From a virus, in the IMG/VR virus record IMGVR_UViG_3300043410_002110, positions 1 to 44,139 of that record: a stretch of DNA of 44,139 nucleotides; one strand, 5' to 3'. This document shows, piece after piece, positions 2,627-18,290 of this stretch. Both the position numbers and the translations under genes were made by a program. Under the pieces are notes generated by a model. The model searched no databases and was not told the DNA's origin. It saw nothing but the letters and a program-made list of their open reading frames with translations. The stretch's first letter is position 1. Each line of letters starts with the position of its first letter.

Positions 2627-2659
2627 TTTATTACCCTAAAATGGTACTCGATAGGATAG

Positions 2660-2708
2660 TGTGGCATTCGTGCGAGTAATCACGTTTTCGGGAGCTACCC
2701 TAGCCACA
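2660..2708 (-). ncRNA. Structured leader element A (upstream of rha)
   Basis: In the minus-strand RNA, TGTGGC (2708-2703) pairs with GCCACA (2665-2660). Inside are GGG-TAGCT-CCC followed by CGAA, then a second hairpin CGTG/CACG. The layout (closing stem, GG..CC hairpin, CCGAA, then TAC and GCG or CGC) is shared with 31149-31200 and 36861-36916. The RNA would start at or one base inside the closing stem. Confidence 0.45.
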
Positions 2709-2713
2709 TAAAC

Positions 2714-2751: not shown

Positions 2752-2846
2752 AGTAAATCATCGCGCTGTTGTTTAGTTATCGCGCCCTGATTATAAGCAT
2801 TGATTACGGCGGCTATGTAATCTGGGTGTTGTCTAATGTCTTGCAT
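2739..2846 (-). CDS. Possible 35-aa protein overlapping the HTH gene
   Basis: From the ATG at 2846 this frame reads MQDIRQHPDYIAAV, then NQGAITKQQRDDLL, ending in KPL. It has a gene-like, helical composition and stops inside the terminator loop at 2739-2741. It overlaps the last 34 bases of the HTH gene in another frame, and no Shine-Dalgarno was seen. It could be a coupled small protein, or the true C-terminus of the HTH protein after a frameshift, since the frame stays open upstream through the HTH C-terminal region. Confidence 0.4.
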   Translation of the reverse strand: MQDIRQHPDYIAAVINAYNQGAITKQQRDDLLKPL

Positions 2847-2998
2847 TCGTACCAATTGTCTTGCAGTTGTGGTTCTTGTTGTAGTTTTACTTCACAGCCA
2901 AGGCGTACAACTTCATACAGCACTGGCTTATTCTTTTTCCAGTTGTGGAGCGTTTGTTTTGACACTCCACTTAAGCGGATTAGGTCGGCGGGTTTCAT
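2813..2998 (-). CDS. Small helix-turn-helix DNA-binding protein, 61 aa
   Basis: Residues 1-35 form a compact HTH: MKPADLIRLSGVS, then KQTLHNWKKNKP, where the second helix resembles recognition helices of Cro/MerR-like mini-regulators. The ATG at 2998 overlaps the portal stop as ATGA. The C-terminal 25 residues are polar and Q-rich. Encoded last in the packaging operon, it may feed back on the rha promoter just downstream; this is inferred from position. Confidence 0.65.
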   Translation of the reverse strand: MKPADLIRLSGVSKQTLHNWKKNKPVLYEVVRLGCEVKLQQEPQLQDNWYECKTLDNTQIT

Positions 2999-3546
2999 TT
3001 TTGAAATTTATCCGTTGCCGCTGATGTCAACAAAGAATTTATAACACCTTTTTTGCTTGGATTTAAAAGTTGGCTATTTAAATCAAAACCTTTGTTGTCA
3101 ATCCATTTTTTAGCACTATCAATGCTTTTTATGTCCTCAATGTTTGTCAGTATTTCGCCGATTAATGGCTTTATAACTGCATGGTTAGCCTCTGGAATGG
3201 CATCATAATTAATGTTATTTAAAAACGACTTAACATAATTAAGCTTTTTAAATGCTTTGTCTCTGATGCTGTTTGCCCACTCTACTTGTTTTTCAGTACC
3301 TACCAATGCAGGTTTGTTTTCGTTTTGAGATTCTTCAACCGCTTGCATAAAATTTTTACGCTGTTTGTCAGAAAACTCGCCGCCGCCATTTTGCGATATT
3401 GGCTTAATATCGCTACCCATTTCTTCCTTGATTGCATTATCAAGATGGAAATTAACATTACTGTCGTGGTGTTCAGTACCTTTTGTGTACTGAGCATTTT
3501 TTGCATTGTGTGGATAATGTTTTTCTAAAAAATCTGTTACGTTCAT
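2995..3546 (-). other. Possible internal translation product, 183 aa (portal residues 992-1174)
   Basis: An in-frame ATG at 3546 lies 8 bases after a GGAG (minus strand, 3586-3546 region), matching the spacing of other genes here. The Shine-Dalgarno is part of a 57-bp repeated hairpin element. The protein would start MNVTDFLEKHYP and carry the GTEKQVEWANSIR module. Separate expression is inferred. Confidence 0.35.
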
Positions 3547-6519
3547 TGTCTTGTCTCCAGTGTTCGCCTCGGATTGAGACGTTGGAGACATTGTTTCATG
3601 ATTTGATTGTGGAGTCAGGTTTGACTCTTCTGGAAAATTTCGCTTAAAACCATCACTTAACTCTAACCCATGTTTTTTTGATAAATCAGCTACTGCTTTT
3701 GCATGTTCTGACGGGATATAAAACAATCCGCTTTTAATGTATTTTGCTCCTTTTAATTTTTTCAAATCATCGTACATTTTTGAATTATGTCCATATTCAA
3801 CTTTTATTTTGCCCGCATCAGCACCTGACGTTAATACAGACGATTTATTACCGCCGCTATTAGACGCTGATTGTTGTTTTGCTGGAGCGGCTTGATTTTT
3901 GTAAAACTCTTTTTCTTTTTCTTTTTCAGCAAGATAAGCTGCATTTTTTTTATCCGCGTCTCTTCCGTATGCTTTGTGATTGATCTCAAATTTTTTGGCT
4001 TGCGATTCTAACCATTCGCCACCTACTCCGCCAAACTCATCGGTATTTTTGTTATAAAACCCTTTGTTTTTACTAACAAAATCTTTTATTTTTTCAAATT
4101 CATCTTTGTCTAATTTGCCACCATTCATTAATGTTCCGTCTTTGTTTATGCCAATTGCAGCCAGCGAGTCATTTAAAGACATAACGCTTTTTTCATGCTT
4201 GCCGTCCATTTGTGTTGACGTCATGCTTGCAATTGCTATTGCTGTATGACTTGGTTTTAAAAACAACGTGCTTTGTTTTTTGTCTGTTTTTACAGCATTT
4301 AAGATATTATTTGCGTTCATTTTAGCTTCTCCAGTGTGCGCCTCGGATTGAGACGTTGGAGACATTGTTTCATGATTTGATTGTTTTGTCAAATTATTTG
4401 ACTCGATTGGCTTATCAGTGGCGGATTGCTCGCTTTGCTTGGTTTCCTTAGCCTGCGACTGTTCACGCTCTGCATTTTTTCGCGCATTTATGTATGATTC
4501 CAAATCCATAGCGTTAGCAAGCATATTCCCGCCAGTAGTGTCTCGCTGGTTGTTTTTTCTTTGATTGCCGCCACCACCTTTTCCAGTTGGTGTGTTTTCC
4601 AAAGCCTTAAGTGATAATTTCTCGCCTTTAGCTTTCATGTCTTTGTGCATTTTTTCAAGCTCTGGAATAGTCGCCTTTGCATAATGTTCATTTACATGAT
4701 GATCTGATTCTAGCGTGTTCTTTTTTGGGCTGCTTTTTGCTGGTTCGTATTTTTCTGGATTGGCTAATTTATCGGCTTCTTTTTCTTTAGCTCTTTGCTC
4801 ATTCATTGCTCTTAGCCTTGCCGCGCCTTTTAATGGTTCTGGCTGTTCACGCTCGGCATTGGTCTCATACTTAGTAAACTTCTTAGTACCTTTCAAATCA
4901 CTGAGCTTTTTACCTTTTAAACCGCTCGCACCTTTTTCGATTGTGCCACCTGCCCCGACAAATACATGACTACCGCCGTTACCCTCTTCTCCACTTTCGC
5001 CATTAAGTGTTATCCAACCATCAGCATACGCAACAGAATCAGCATAGGCTGGCTGCTCATTGCTTTGTGGTTGTTGTTGCATCAATGCCAACTGTTGCGC
5101 TTGTTGTTGCTGTGCTTGCGCTTGTTGTTCAGCACTATATTGAATCAATAAGTCGGGATCAATCTCTAACGGATTAGGAAATAACAACTTGTTATCGTTT
5201 AGGTTAGTTTGTGCCCATTCCAATACAGCCCCTTGATTAACAGGGTCTAATTTGTCATACACCGCGCCTATTAAATCATTAATAGCTTTAAATTTAGTTT
5301 CTTCAACTTTAATCAACTCGCTATCGGGTTCTTTTAACAAGTTTTCCCATTCTGCACAAAATGACTTTTTCCAGCTATTAAAAGCCGCTTGCCAGGATAC
5401 GTCTTTATAACTAGGACAGCGCGGTTTAATAGTTTCATAAAATTCAGGATTCCATGCGCGATACATGACAATTTGATCAAAAAAATCATAGAGTGGTTGC
5501 AATTCATTTCTAAACCAGTCGATATATTCAGCAATTTCTTTTGCGTCTTCTGCACCTTCTCCAAAACCAGTGGCAAAGGTTTCGTTAGATAACAACTTGG
5601 CAGGCAATCCTGCGGCTGCGGCTATGTTCTCAAGTATGTTCTTACGGCTTGCGTCCATTGCTTGATTGACGTTAGTCATGTTAAGCGTCTCTACGCTGTC
5701 ATCAGTACCCATATCCAGCACGTTGCCAGTAGCCGCGCCTTTCAAAACTGTCCGTTTGAACTCACTGATTGCCAGCATAGTTTTATTGACAATAGTACCC
5801 GCCTTTTTAGTTTTCATGACTAACAAGCCAGCCTTAGTAGCCACGCTGTCATCAGTAATCATACTTCTAATGTATGACTTCATAGGGAACAATGAACGGG
5901 TAAATACAGACCTGCCCACATAGCCATAGCTTGACTGTGTGTAAGATAGGTAGATAGGTCGCTCATTCATGAACGTACAAACGCGCGAATGATGATAAGG
6001 CTTGCCTTGGCACGTTACCGAGTCAATACGTTGAAAGTCTACGCTGTTTGCATCTTGAGATAGAATAACGCTACCCGCTGTATTCAATGGGTCGAGTACG
6101 TTAAAAAAGATATTGAGTTTATACAGTTGTTCTAACGGTAGCGGCTCATTAGTTTTAGTCTTTTGTTCGGATTCTACGCCCTCATCATCAACGCCCATAA
6201 TTGCGCTACCAAAGCCGTAGATTCTGGCTTGACGTGCAATGTTGGCTATAATGCTATCGACTTTTAACGCGTTCCACTCGTCAACAAACGCCTTTACAAC
6301 CAAGTCCTCAGGACTATTAGGAACGGATAGTTTACGCGGTTTAGATAGGGCTTTAACAATCGGTAAATCGACTATTTTTGCCCCTAACGGGTGATGTAAA
6401 TACAGTTGTTTACATAACTGATAACCTAAATCAGAACCAACTTGTATGTTATCCGCCATTAATATGTCTAGTAATGGAGTCGTTAAGCCGCTGCCAGTTA
6501 TGTCAAGTTCTGCATTCAT
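2995..6519 (-). CDS. Composite portal protein (DUF1073-like) with long modular C-terminal extension
   Basis: 1174 aa, against roughly 450-550 for a usual portal. Residues 1-460 match the DUF1073 portal family: an HHPLGAKIVD helix, YGFGSAIMGVDD, and AAAGLPAKLLSNETFATGFGEG followed by a YDFFDQ segment. Residues 464-484 are Q-rich. Residues about 500-545 hold a WITLNG...HVFVGAGGTIEKG module seen in minor head proteins. Charged low-complexity sequence follows. Two copies of a QSNHETMSPTSQSEA linker precede in-frame methionines 734 and 992. Residues 734-960 contain a segment (KIKVEYGHNSKMYDDL to GLFYIPS) resembling HARP-like small domains; residues 992-1174 hold a GTEKQVEWANSIR module. The portal forms the DNA gateway at the head vertex and docks the terminase. 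It starts 3 bases after the terL stop. Later modules may also be made separately. Confidence 0.8.
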   Translation of the reverse strand: MNAELDITGSGLTTPLLDILMADNIQVGSDLGYQLCKQLYLHHPLGAKIVDLPIVKALSKPRKLSVPNSPEDLVVKAFVDEWNALKVDSIIANIARQARIYGFGSAIMGVDDEGVESEQKTKTNEPLPLEQLYKLNIFFNVLDPLNTAGSVILSQDANSVDFQRIDSVTCQGKPYHHSRVCTFMNERPIYLSYTQSSYGYVGRSVFTRSLFPMKSYIRSMITDDSVATKAGLLVMKTKKAGTIVNKTMLAISEFKRTVLKGAATGNVLDMGTDDSVETLNMTNVNQAMDASRKNILENIAAAAGLPAKLLSNETFATGFGEGAEDAKEIAEYIDWFRNELQPLYDFFDQIVMYRAWNPEFYETIKPRCPSYKDVSWQAAFNSWKKSFCAEWENLLKEPDSELIKVEETKFKAINDLIGAVYDKLDPVNQGAVLEWAQTNLNDNKLLFPNPLEIDPDLLIQYSAEQQAQAQQQQAQQLALMQQQPQSNEQPAYADSVAYADGWITLNGESGEEGNGGSHVFVGAGGTIEKGASGLKGKKLSDLKGTKKFTKYETNAEREQPEPLKGAARLRAMNEQRAKEKEADKLANPEKYEPAKSSPKKNTLESDHHVNEHYAKATIPELEKMHKDMKAKGEKLSLKALENTPTGKGGGGNQRKNNQRDTTGGNMLANAMDLESYINARKNAEREQSQAKETKQSEQSATDKPIESNNLTKQSNHETMSPTSQSEAHTGEAKMNANNILNAVKTDKKQSTLFLKPSHTAIAIASMTSTQMDGKHEKSVMSLNDSLAAIGINKDGTLMNGGKLDKDEFEKIKDFVSKNKGFYNKNTDEFGGVGGEWLESQAKKFEINHKAYGRDADKKNAAYLAEKEKEKEFYKNQAAPAKQQSASNSGGNKSSVLTSGADAGKIKVEYGHNSKMYDDLKKLKGAKYIKSGLFYIPSEHAKAVADLSKKHGLELSDGFKRNFPEESNLTPQSNHETMSPTSQSEANTGDKTMNVTDFLEKHYPHNAKNAQYTKGTEHHDSNVNFHLDNAIKEEMGSDIKPISQNGGGEFSDKQRKNFMQAVEESQNENKPALVGTEKQVEWANSIRDKAFKKLNYVKSFLNNINYDAIPEANHAVIKPLIGEILTNIEDIKSIDSAKKWIDNKGFDLNSQLLNPSKKGVINSLLTSAATDKFQK
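3554..3610 (-). repeat. 57-bp in-gene repeat, copy 2: Shine-Dalgarno-sequestering hairpin
   Basis: 56 of 57 bases are identical to 4328-4384. In the minus-strand RNA TCTCCA (3588-3583) pairs with TGGAGA (3559-3554), and inside it CGTCTC (3581-3576) pairs with GAGGCG (3570-3565) around loop AATCC. The GGAG of the internal ribosome site is within the stem, just before ATG 3546. Confidence 0.8.
4328..4384 (-). repeat. 57-bp in-gene repeat, copy 1: Shine-Dalgarno-sequestering hairpin
   Basis: Same element as 3554-3610, with one mismatch, placed before the in-frame ATG at 4320 (portal residue 734, MNANNILNAV). The 774-bp spacing is a multiple of three. Both copies read through as the same linker peptide in the long portal frame. 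Confidence 0.8.
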
Positions 6520-10522: not shown

Positions 10523-10629
10523 TTTTTAATTTTACGACAAACAAAACAAACGCATATTTTTGGATTTATAACATTGTTATAAGGTTTAAAAACACGCTTA
10601 CAGACATTGCATTTTAATAATGCGCTCAT
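10519..10629 (-). CDS. 36-aa zinc-knuckle microprotein
   Basis: From the ATG at 10629, overlapping the stop of the four-finger gene as TGATG, the frame reads MSALLKCNVCKRVF and later ICVCFVCRKIKK. CxxC near the start and CxCxxC near the end would bind one zinc. Overlaps on both sides support translation. Confidence 0.6.
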   Translation of the reverse strand: MSALLKCNVCKRVFKPYNNVINPKICVCFVCRKIKK

Positions 10630-11189
10630 CATCGTTCCTTATCTCTAACAAATCTCAATTTACCACCACAACTAAACCCGCAGGTCTGCTGCCATTTATT
10701 CACTGGTATAAAGTTATTGTGGCAAACAGGGCACGGTTTAGGTTGTTTAGGTTTAGTTCTGTACGCCGCTAAACACGCCACGCTACACAATCTACTGCTT
10801 TGCTTCCTCGGAGCAAACATCTTGCCGCATTGTTTGCACTGTTGAGTAGCCACTTTTCTTGAATCCGCTGAGCATTGATTGCTACAAAACTTAGCAATCG
10901 GTGATCGTGACACAAAATGCTTGCCGCATTGCTTGCACACTTTTTCATTTACTGAATGTTCACGCACATAGCCTGCACTTTTGCACTTCTGGCAGCAATA
11001 TTTTTGCTGGCCACGTTTTAACGCAACAACACCGCAAAATTCACACATTTTTACTTCTTTATCGTAATCGTCAAAAAAGTATGAGGTTTTAGGCGCTTTA
11101 ACTTTTACACGCTCAAACACAGTTGCATAATGACCGACTGTGCCAACATGAATTAATTTACCGCTGTGTGTGGTATGCGTTTGAATCAT
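10629..11189 (-). CDS. Zinc-finger array protein with four repeated fingers
   Basis: 186 aa. After a 45-residue N-terminal part come four similar units: CEFCGVVALKRGQQKYCCQKC, then CKQCGKHFVSRSPIAKFCSNQC, CKQCGKMFAPRKQSSRLCSVAC and CPVCHNNFIPVNKWQQTCGFSC written here by their ends. Each has CxxC, about 11-14 residues, then C(x)xxC, as in FCS/MYM-like fingers. The linkers are basic. Such fingers bind DNA, RNA or proteins. Tandem arrays are unusual for a 44-kb phage. It overlaps its neighbours on both sides. Confidence 0.7.
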   Translation of the reverse strand: MIQTHTTHSGKLIHVGTVGHYATVFERVKVKAPKTSYFFDDYDKEVKMCEFCGVVALKRGQQKYCCQKCKSAGYVREHSVNEKVCKQCGKHFVSRSPIAKFCSNQCSADSRKVATQQCKQCGKMFAPRKQSSRLCSVACLAAYRTKPKQPKPCPVCHNNFIPVNKWQQTCGFSCGGKLRFVRDKER

Positions 11190-16755: not shown

Positions 16756-17442
16756 ATGAAATGTAAAGTATGTGAATCAACAGAATTTAAGTATTGTTTT
16801 ACAACTGATTCAATAGGTAGAACGCAATATAGACAGTATTGTATTAAATGCGGTTCGTTCTTTGGTACGGCTGTAAAAAAAGAGATTGCTTTAAATTGTG
16901 GTTATGAACTTGTTGAACAATCAGGAAAAGCTTTAAATTTTAAAGCCGATGTATTTAAAGATAATTTTTGGAAATTATCGGATGAGCATTATAACCATAA
17001 CCGTAACGGGTTAAGTTTTGGGTTTATACAACATGACGATGATAGAAAATCATATATTTTGTATTGCCCAGAATGCAAGGAACATCTTGGTTATATTTCA
17101 GATTTAGTTATTGAATGGATTTCAAATAGTTGGAACGAAACATATTTATTATTGCTTGGTTCTGCTATAAATTTAACACCGTTTGATATTCCTAAATATG
17201 CCCACAAAATCCCACAAATCCTGCTAGACGAATACAACGATTATATTCATTCTGAAAAGTGGAAAAGACAACGACAAAACAGAATGGCTCTTGATAACAA
17301 TGAATGTAAACTTTGTTTTAGTAAAAACAATCTCAGAGTGCATCACATAACCTATGCAGAATTGGGCAATGAACCAATGAACCATCTTTTAACAGTCTGC
17401 AAAGATTGCCATAACTTAATACACGGACACGACACCCAATGA
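16756..17442 (+). CDS. HNH endonuclease with N-terminal zinc ribbon
   Basis: 228 aa. The N-terminus has two CxxC pairs (CKVC at 3-6, CIKC at 29-32), a zinc ribbon; CPEC is near 105. The C-terminal HNH domain has IHSEKWKRQRQNRMA, then CKLC, VHHITYAELGNE, a NHLLTVCKDCHNLIHG ending: H-H, N and H with two zinc-binding CxxC. A free-standing phage HNH nicks or cuts DNA, either as a homing enzyme or in packaging. First gene of the plus-strand early run. Confidence 0.85.
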   Translation: MKCKVCESTEFKYCFTTDSIGRTQYRQYCIKCGSFFGTAVKKEIALNCGYELVEQSGKALNFKADVFKDNFWKLSDEHYNHNRNGLSFGFIQHDDDRKSYILYCPECKEHLGYISDLVIEWISNSWNETYLLLLGSAINLTPFDIPKYAHKIPQILLDEYNDYIHSEKWKRQRQNRMALDNNECKLCFSKNNLRVHHITYAELGNEPMNHLLTVCKDCHNLIHGHDTQ

Positions 17443-17726: not shown

Positions 17727-17905
17727 CCCGCAGAACAATACCCAAAAAACCGCCGTTAAAAGAAACCTTGGAAACTAACCGCCGTCACATAAACTTTTTA
17801 GACATGATGGCAGGTAAACCGCCGCGCTATGAGGACCTAAACGCGCCACTACAGGATAAAGATAATGTTTCGACAAATAGCCAAAAAAAAAGCACAAAAC
17901 TTTAG
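17723..17905 (+). CDS. Hypothetical basic protein, 60 aa
   Basis: The ATG at 17723 overlaps the previous stop as ATGA; the GTG at 17714 is less likely. Short, basic and proline-rich at the start (MTRRTIPKKPPLKET). Its last 41 bases overlap the next HNH gene in another frame. Confidence 0.55.
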   Translation: MTRRTIPKKPPLKETLETNRRHINFLDMMAGKPPRYEDLNAPLQDKDNVSTNSQKKSTKL

Positions 17906-18290
17906 GATCAATTGTTTAGCGCGTGCTAAAAAACTAAGCATATCACCCGATGATGTGCCTATGCCTAACGACTTTTACTTGTTTTTGCTTACCTATGAGC
18001 CACGCATAGAAACGTACCGTAAACGGCAATACTTAACTTGTGAATACACAGGAGCTCGTGTACCGATTACCGACATTGAACTGGACCATAAACAGCCTGT
18101 AAGCCGTAACGGTAGCTTTAAAATCTGGAATCTGGCAATAACCAGCAAAAAAACAAATCAGCAAAAAGGACAGCTAACCTCTATGGAGTTCGCTAGATTG
18201 CTGGATTTACTGGACGAATTTGACAAGGACGCAAAAAAAGACGTACTGGCAAGGCTACGCGCTGGTGCGAGTCGGTTTATAAAACATTGA
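17865..18290 (+). CDS. HNH endonuclease, second copy type
   Basis: 141 aa. The HNH core is CEYTGARVP, then ELDHKQPVSRNGS and WNLAITSKKTNQQKG: DH, N and N-x(8)-K as in many phage HNH enzymes. It lacks the extra zinc ribbon of the 16756 enzyme and is not closely similar to it. It may cut DNA during recombination or packaging. An AGGA site lies about 10 bases before the ATG. Confidence 0.8.
   Translation: MFRQIAKKKAQNFRINCLARAKKLSISPDDVPMPNDFYLFLLTYEPRIETYRKRQYLTCEYTGARVPITDIELDHKQPVSRNGSFKIWNLAITSKKTNQQKGQLTSMEFARLLDLLDEFDKDAKKDVLARLRAGASRFIKH

What the first reader, a model, noticed from the sequence alone, without database searches (positions are those of the whole stretch)
3546..4384. Duplicated 57-bp hairpin that buries a Shine-Dalgarno, inside one portal reading frame
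Seen: 3554-3610 and 4328-4384 are 56/57 identical, 774 bp apart and in frame. In the minus-strand RNA each folds into a nested stem (TCTCCA/TGGAGA, CGTCTC/GAGGCG, loop AATCC) whose 3' arm contains the GGAG, followed by an in-frame ATG (4320, 3546). Both copies also encode the same linker peptide. Inference: separate genes with regulated ribosome sites were fused to the portal, and a translating ribosome could melt the hairpin and permit internal starts, giving the long portal and its modules from one mRNA. Alternatively the element is a recombination boundary used to shuffle modules.
Basis: partly seen in the sequence, partly recalled or inferred. Interest (0 to 1): 0.8.

Follow-up and report, generated by a model that had tools for sequence, protein, structure and literature searches.

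The report
Hidden gene starts inside portal gene
A phage portal gene carries foreign add-on segments, and at each joint lies what looks like a complete built-in gene start (promoter, RNA hairpin hiding the ribosome site, start codon), so the segments could be made both fused to the portal and as separate proteins; this is predicted from sequence, not yet shown.

Summary
In detail: two in-frame copies (56/57 identical) of a hairpin burying GGAG, each 8 nt before an in-frame ATG, inside a 1174-codon portal ORF. One relative (L003, portal core 85% identical) keeps one copy: all five hairpin differences fall in loops, ATGAACG is unchanged, and a different module follows. About 80 other relatives have a plain 460-530-aa portal.

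It ranks first genome-wide by an approximate matrix; by consensus count it is unique best in L003 and joint best in the window. The predicted start base is the last base of the hairpin's 5' arm, so a short transcript would lose the arm that hides the Shine-Dalgarno: the switch known from T4 genes e, soc, 49 and I-TevI. GC falls from 41% to 34% exactly there.

Best reading: moron-like, AT-rich modules with their own promoter-hairpin-start, joined in frame to the tail of a portal whose relative carries a polyvalent-type ddrB-ParB domain. The second copy arose by recombination or duplication. The ribosome-melting model is possible but less likely. No expression data exist; copy A's promoter is weak.

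The parts
2995..6519 (-). Portal ORF, 1174 aa; portal core residues 1 to ~480 (phrog_146)
4840..5079 (-). M0: Gly-rich WITLNGESGEEGNGGSHVFVGAGG segment (residues ~481-560); in L084/L085/L089 it is the N-terminus of a separate gene
4399..4839 (-). M1: module shared with L003 (residues ~561-707), GC 42%
4364..4392 (-). Copy B promoter-like site: -35 TTGACA (4392-4387), 17-nt spacer with TGA, -10 AACAAT (4369-4364)
4328..4384 (-). 57-bp repeat, copy B
4328..4362 (-). Copy B hairpin (35 nt); predicted +1 at 4357 is the last base of the 5' arm; SD TGGAGA 4333-4328
4318..4320 (-). In-frame ATG (residue 734), putative start of M2-M3 (441 aa)
3625..4314 (-). M2: AT-rich module (residues 736-965, GC 34.6%), no family match
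3590..3618 (-). Copy A promoter-like site, weak: CTGACT-17-TGA-AACAAT
   Evidence: rank 132 of 88,218
3554..3610 (-). 57-bp repeat, copy A
3554..3588 (-). Copy A hairpin (8-bp outer stem in context); SD TGGAGA 3559-3554
3544..3546 (-). In-frame ATG (residue 992), putative start of M3 (183 aa)
2995..3540 (-). M3: AT-rich terminal module (residues 994-1174, GC 34.2%); GTEKQVEWANSIRDKA motif shared with free-standing phage proteins
2728..2751 (-). Intrinsic-terminator-like hairpin after the 61-aa ORF 2813-2998; not seen at the same place in L003
18670..20125 (+). Erf-like annealing protein and RecE-like exonuclease: a phage recombination system able to use short homologies

Best explanation
Each copy is a gene-start unit of about 90 bp kept in the reading frame of the portal. 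From 5' to 3' it has a sigma70-type promoter with extended -10, a hairpin whose 3' arm is the Shine-Dalgarno, an 8-nt gap and ATGAACG. The modules behind it (M2-M3, M3, and a different one in L003) are AT-rich, moron-like cargo added to the polyvalent-type tail of the portal. On the long late mRNA the hairpin is complete and hides the SD, so only the full fusion protein is made. RNA polymerase starting at the internal promoter begins at the last base of the 5' arm; that short mRNA cannot form the outer stem, exposes the SD, and yields the modules as free proteins. The second copy arose when an extra module was added by recombination or duplication at the unit. Shown: sequences, conservation, predicted folding, composition, promoter scores. 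Inferred: transcription start, translation from the internal ATGs, function of the modules.
For: Promoter: copy B is the top site of 88,218 positions in the window and the L003 counterpart the top of 31,470 (approximate matrix). By plain consensus count plus TGn, B ties for best of the window with two others and L003 is the unique best. The scan tool independently lists B (10/12 with TG). In the diverged 22 nt before the hairpin (11 of 22 differ between phages) the kept bases include TGA and the AAT of the -10. Switch: SD unpaired probability is 0.00 in long RNA of all three copies; with +1 at the canonical A it is 0.57-0.76 (B), 0.20-0.90 (L003), 0.06-0.78 (A). Conservation: 12 of 12 stem pairs unchanged; all 5 differences in loops, P 0.0014. 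Beyond the peptide: promoter and hairpin jointly as good in 0 of 5000 re-encodings for B and L003, 0.0004 for A. Cargo: GC 41% core, 34.6% M2, 34.2% M3, 32.9% L003 terminal module. Position: about 80 relatives have no tail, and in most the head-morphogenesis gene follows directly. Precedent: T4 genes e, soc, 49, I-TevI (PMC3014915; PMC2988022).
Against: No expression data. Only two genomes carry the unit, so covariation cannot be tested (no pair varies). Copy A has a poor -35 (4 of 6) and only partial SD release. Promoter-like sites are common in this AT-rich region (18 found, 10 expected), and the stricter scan missed the L003 site because its -10 is TTTAAT. The scoring matrix was written from memory. 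No terminator was found behind the L003 unit, so its transcript would enter downstream late genes. Host and lifestyle are unknown; no integrase was found among the proteins scanned.
Confidence: 0.52

Rival explanations
1. Recombination joint only: the unit is a short stretch of homology at which foreign C-terminal modules are swapped or stacked (phage Erf/RecE-like annealing). Its promoter, SD and ATG are relics of free-standing genes and no longer used; only the fusion protein is made.
For: A-B identity is 56/57 with sharp edges into homologous but diverged flanks (P 3e-6); recombination between copies would delete M2 in frame, giving 916 aa; shared M1 has lower synonymous divergence than the core (0.25 vs 0.47, P 2e-5); L085/L089 swap everything behind a conserved N-terminus; L084 has an independent 68-nt junction duplication at the portal 3' end; Erf and RecE-like genes.
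Against: Does not explain why stem, SD, spacing and ATGAACG are kept between two phages while neighbouring bases changed by half, nor the promoter and hairpin beyond codon expectation.
Confidence: 0.27
2. One reading: ribosomes translating the portal melt the hairpin and allow internal starts at 4320 and 3546 from the same long mRNA, without an internal promoter.
For: Strong SD buried in a stable hairpin; the reading frame is continuous through both copies.
Against: A hairpin of -14 to -18 kcal/mol should refold quickly behind an in-frame ribosome, and no stop codon in the portal frame lies near to provide classical coupling (general knowledge). A promoter at the right place makes it unnecessary.
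Confidence: 0.1
3. Plain peptide linker (NLT-x8-SPTSQxEAxTGxxxMN) between domains; hairpin, SD and promoter match are chance.
For: All copies encode the same linker peptide; changed codons are mostly the ones whose residues differ.
Against: Synonymous positions unchanged in 11 of 12 conserved codons (about P 0.002 against the core rate; weaker, about 0.04, against the local M1 rate). Synonymous re-encodings almost never reproduce promoter plus hairpin. Met kept between variable residues.
Confidence: 0.08
4. Assembly artefact: two strains with different modules joined at the 57-bp repeat.
For: Metagenomic contig; short repeat.
Against: Both joints are in frame, copy A has its own diverged but homologous flanks, and an independent contig carries the unit at the same place.
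Confidence: 0.03

Closest known systems
T4 genes e, soc, 49 and I-TevI: SD-sequestering hairpin with a promoter whose transcript lacks the 5' arm (PMC3014915, PMC2988022)
   Same: SD in the 3' arm of a hairpin on the long transcript; promoter placed so that the short transcript omits the 5' arm; the gene 49 literature title speaks of 'two nested proteins', like the nested in-frame products proposed here.
   Different: Sigma70-type instead of T4 late promoter; inside a structural (portal) gene of an unrelated phage; duplicated in tandem with cargo modules; short transcript not mapped.
Morons of tailed phages (definition as in PMC4378225)
   Same: Accessory module with own promoter, different base composition, placed between genes that abut in relatives.
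   Different: Joined in frame to the upstream structural gene; terminator only in the window and only after a further ORF; expression from a prophage unknown.
Polyvalent proteins and their portal fusions (Iyer et al. 2017, PMC5512222)
   Same: Portal with multi-domain tail; the L003 tail carries a ddrB-ParB domain (PF18763); strong module turnover.
   Different: The window's M1-M3 match no described domain; internal gene-start units at the joints are not reported in the passages read.
Polymorphic MuF proteins (PMC5576092)
   Same: Variable C-terminal module on a head protein next to portal and terminase genes.
   Different: Here the MuF-like protein (366-1154) is separate and has no extension; the cargo is on the portal.
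Rickettsia palindromic elements in coding sequence (from memory; searched, no paper read)
   Same: Palindrome read in frame as part of a protein.
   Different: Not dispersed: only at this boundary in two genomes.

Membership tests
T4-type hairpin/internal-promoter switch | SD paired in an RNA helix on the long transcript | tested here: met
   SD unpaired probability 0.00 in all three copies (predicted folding)
T4-type hairpin/internal-promoter switch | Promoter located so that the short transcript lacks the 5' arm | tested here: met
   Predicted +1 (A, 7th base after -10) is the last base of the 5' arm in B, A and L003; from sequence only
T4-type hairpin/internal-promoter switch | T4 late promoter (TATAAATA) | tested here: not met
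   Sequence reads AACAATGT or TTTAATAT with a -35 TTGACA; hence works like it, not a member
T4-type hairpin/internal-promoter switch | Short transcript is mapped and translated | not testable with these tools
   needs RNA and protein data
Moron | Own promoter | tested here: met
   (prediction only; weak for copy A)
Moron | Own terminator | tested here: inconclusive
   Terminator-like site 2751-2728 in the window, none found behind L003
Moron | Base composition differs from neighbours | tested here: met
   34.6, 34.2 and 32.9% against 41-42%
Moron | Lies between genes that are adjacent in relatives | tested here: met
   Portal and MuF-like genes abut in most of ~80 relatives; but here fused in frame
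Polyvalent protein | Multi-domain tail with described polyvalent domains | tested here: inconclusive
   ddrB-ParB in L003; none in the window's M1-M3
Polyvalent protein | Packaged and injected with the DNA | not testable with these tools
   needs virion proteomics
MuF polymorphic toxin | MuF domain and variable module in one protein | tested here: not met
   MuF-like ORF 366-1154 matches phrog_324 over nearly its whole length and is separate
Dispersed in-frame palindromic repeat (RPE-like) | Copies dispersed in unrelated genes | tested here: not met
   Covariance-model search of 62 sources (753 kb) finds only the three copies; whole L003 contig one copy

The most novel reading that the evidence does not exclude
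A phage makes the same cargo modules in two forms from one reading frame: attached to the portal in the virion (late mRNA, hairpin closed) and as free proteins in the cell (internal sigma70 promoter, hairpin unable to form). The promoter-hairpin-start unit is also the joint at which modules are exchanged, so every newly captured module is at once virion-attached and independently expressed.
Probability: 0.3. Interest if true: 0.78.

Novelty: new variant of a known kind. Interest (0 to 1): 0.57.

Why it matters
How phages acquire cargo modules on structural proteins, and how such nested modules are controlled, is poorly known; one report read here calls the acquisition mechanism of such variable genes mysterious (PMC4378225). 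Here one short sequence would serve as joint, promoter, translation switch and start codon. If true, portal-fused cargo could also act inside the cell without the virion, and virion proteins annotated as single long ORFs could hide nested genes detectable by the same signature: promoter, SD-burying hairpin and ATG at a composition break.

Tried and rejected
Exact element in viral contigs: none. Relaxed hairpin pattern: four chance look-alikes in unrelated contigs plus L003. Degenerate linker pattern: only L003 in viral contigs, none in the 84,980 genomes; none in phages or plasmids. Covariance model over 62 sources: no further copy. Rfam: nothing at the element. M2, M1 and L003 terminal module: no families; no M2 relatives. 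Relatedness of M2, M3 and the L003 terminal module outside the joint: not significant (P 0.05-0.23). AlphaFold single-sequence models of M2 and M3 too poor to use (pLDDT 52 and 43), so no fold search. A 369-genome class sample found only the portal already known. A small ORF in another frame ending at ATGA of the module start (read by eye) is absent in L003, so a leader-peptide model was dropped. Palindromic mobile element rejected.
Full report
OBSERVATION. The window is a viral contig. The portal ORF runs 6519 to 2995 on the minus strand, 1174 aa. The two 57-bp copies are exact as described, 774 bp apart and in frame, and occur nowhere else in the window. The hairpin folds in the mRNA strand with z-scores from -2.4 to -4.4; on the opposite strand only weakly in the window copies (-0.4 and -1.4). 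GGAG lies 8 nt before an in-frame ATG in both copies. Its predicted pairing with the ribosome is as good as the best sixth of gene starts in this window. GGA is a rare glycine codon here (68 of 525).

SURROUNDINGS. Residues 1 to about 480 match portal family phrog_146. Behind the core come a Gly-rich segment (M0), M1, copy B, M2, copy A and M3. M1, M2 and M3 match no described family, except that M3 matches an unknown-function phrog weakly and shares a short motif (GTEKQVEWANSIRDKA) with free-standing phage proteins. A head-morphogenesis gene (phrog_324) lies further downstream, after a Rha-like regulator and small genes.

RELATIVES. The nearest relative, L003, has an 85% identical core and a 1281-aa portal. 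It has M0, an inserted ddrB-ParB region (PF18763, E 3e-38), M1, one copy of the unit, and then a different ending of about 87 residues. Outside the joint the three endings are not detectably related. About 80 more distant relatives have portals of 460-530 aa without a tail, most with the head-morphogenesis gene directly behind; named phages such as PdC23, RothD, Chronis, QDWS and Rac-SA53 agree. In L084, L085 and L089 a separate gene downstream of the portal (one or two genes later) begins with an M0-like segment. L085 and L089 are 98% identical through the portal but have unrelated tails in that gene, so C-terminal module exchange happens at this genomic place. L084 has its own, unrelated 68-nt duplicated junction at the portal end; it stands out from all other loci.

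THE ELEMENT IS LONGER THAN 57 BP. Aligning the three copies, the shared unit begins with AATTTGACA (peptide NLT) in B and L003 and ends with ATGAACG. Between B and L003, 11 of 22 bases before the hairpin differ, 5 of 35 in the hairpin (all in loop or bulge, P 0.0014), 2 of 7 in the SD-ATG spacer, and 0 of 7 in ATGAACG. Between A and B the 57 bp are nearly identical while the homologous flanks differ at 10 of 21 bases (P 3e-6). This is the mark of a recent recombination or duplication tract. The phage carries Erf-like and RecE-like recombination genes, and recombination between the copies would remove M2 in frame (916 aa).

PROMOTER. The scan tool lists TTGACA-17-AACAAT with TG before the -10 at 4392-4364. 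Scored over both strands of the window with an approximate sigma70 matrix (values from memory) this is the best of 88,218 positions. The homologous L003 site, TTGACA-17-TGA-TTTAAT, is the best of 31,470. With plain consensus counting the window site ties for best with two others and the L003 site is the unique best. Joint best in the window and second in L003 is a site upstream of the head-protease gene region, present in both phages (44002 and L003:11697), which suggests that the scores pick real promoters. Copy A keeps the extended -10 but has a weak -35 (rank 132). Re-encoding the peptides with the phage's codon usage gives promoter and hairpin together as good in 0 of 5000 (B), 0 of 5000 (L003) and 2 of 5000 (A) trials.

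SWITCH. The base at the usual start distance is the A that ends the hairpin's 5' arm, in all three copies. Folding of long RNA leaves the SD fully paired; folding of RNA starting at that A leaves it largely unpaired in B, partly in L003 and A. In T4 genes e, soc, 49 and I-TevI the long early transcripts bury the SD; where short transcripts from a promoter at the 5' arm were studied, they do not (PMC3014915; PMC2988022). The anatomy here is the same with a sigma70-type promoter.

CARGO. GC is 41% in the core and 42% in M1, but 34.6% in M2, 34.2% in M3 and 32.9% in the L003 ending; the linker plus copy A between M2 and M3 is back at 44%. Together with the promoter this fits moron-like additions, here read in frame with the portal.

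VERDICT. The most likely mechanism is an embedded gene start with its own promoter and a hairpin that closes it on the long mRNA. It rests on prediction and on two genomes. Absence of the unit elsewhere holds only for the collections searched, and records very near the window may be left out of them.

Noticed in passing
L084:2943-3010 and 3275-3342: Independent 68-nt duplicated junction (81% identical) encoding the same C-terminal tail at the end of the portal and of the next 111-aa ORF.
   Followed up: partly
L085:9180-10313 and L089:5375-6574: Near-identical phages (98% through the portal) whose downstream M0-type gene keeps its N-terminus but has unrelated C-terminal parts; L089 has DUF5710 there.
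   Followed up: partly
window 44002 (-) and L003:11697 (+): Conserved strong promoter-like site ATGATA-16-TGC-TATAAT upstream of the head-protease gene region in both phages.
   Followed up: no
window 2646-2710 (-): Weak match to Rfam int-alpA RNA (26.8 bits, below gathering 35.8, E 0.01) just upstream of the Rha-like gene.
   Followed up: no
window 2813-2998 (-): 61-aa ORF overlapping the portal stop codon; L003 has a similar coding sequence starting right at its portal stop.
   Followed up: no
window 4399-4839 (-) versus L003: M1 has lower synonymous divergence (0.25) than the portal core (0.47), suggesting later exchange of the tail.
   Followed up: partly
window 3544-3602 and 4318-4376 (-): Small ORF in another frame through the hairpin whose stop overlaps the module ATG (ATGA) in both copies, but not in L003.
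   Followed up: partly
window 10629-11189 (-), 16756-17442 (+), 17865-18290 (+): Three HNH-endonuclease-like genes.
   Followed up: no
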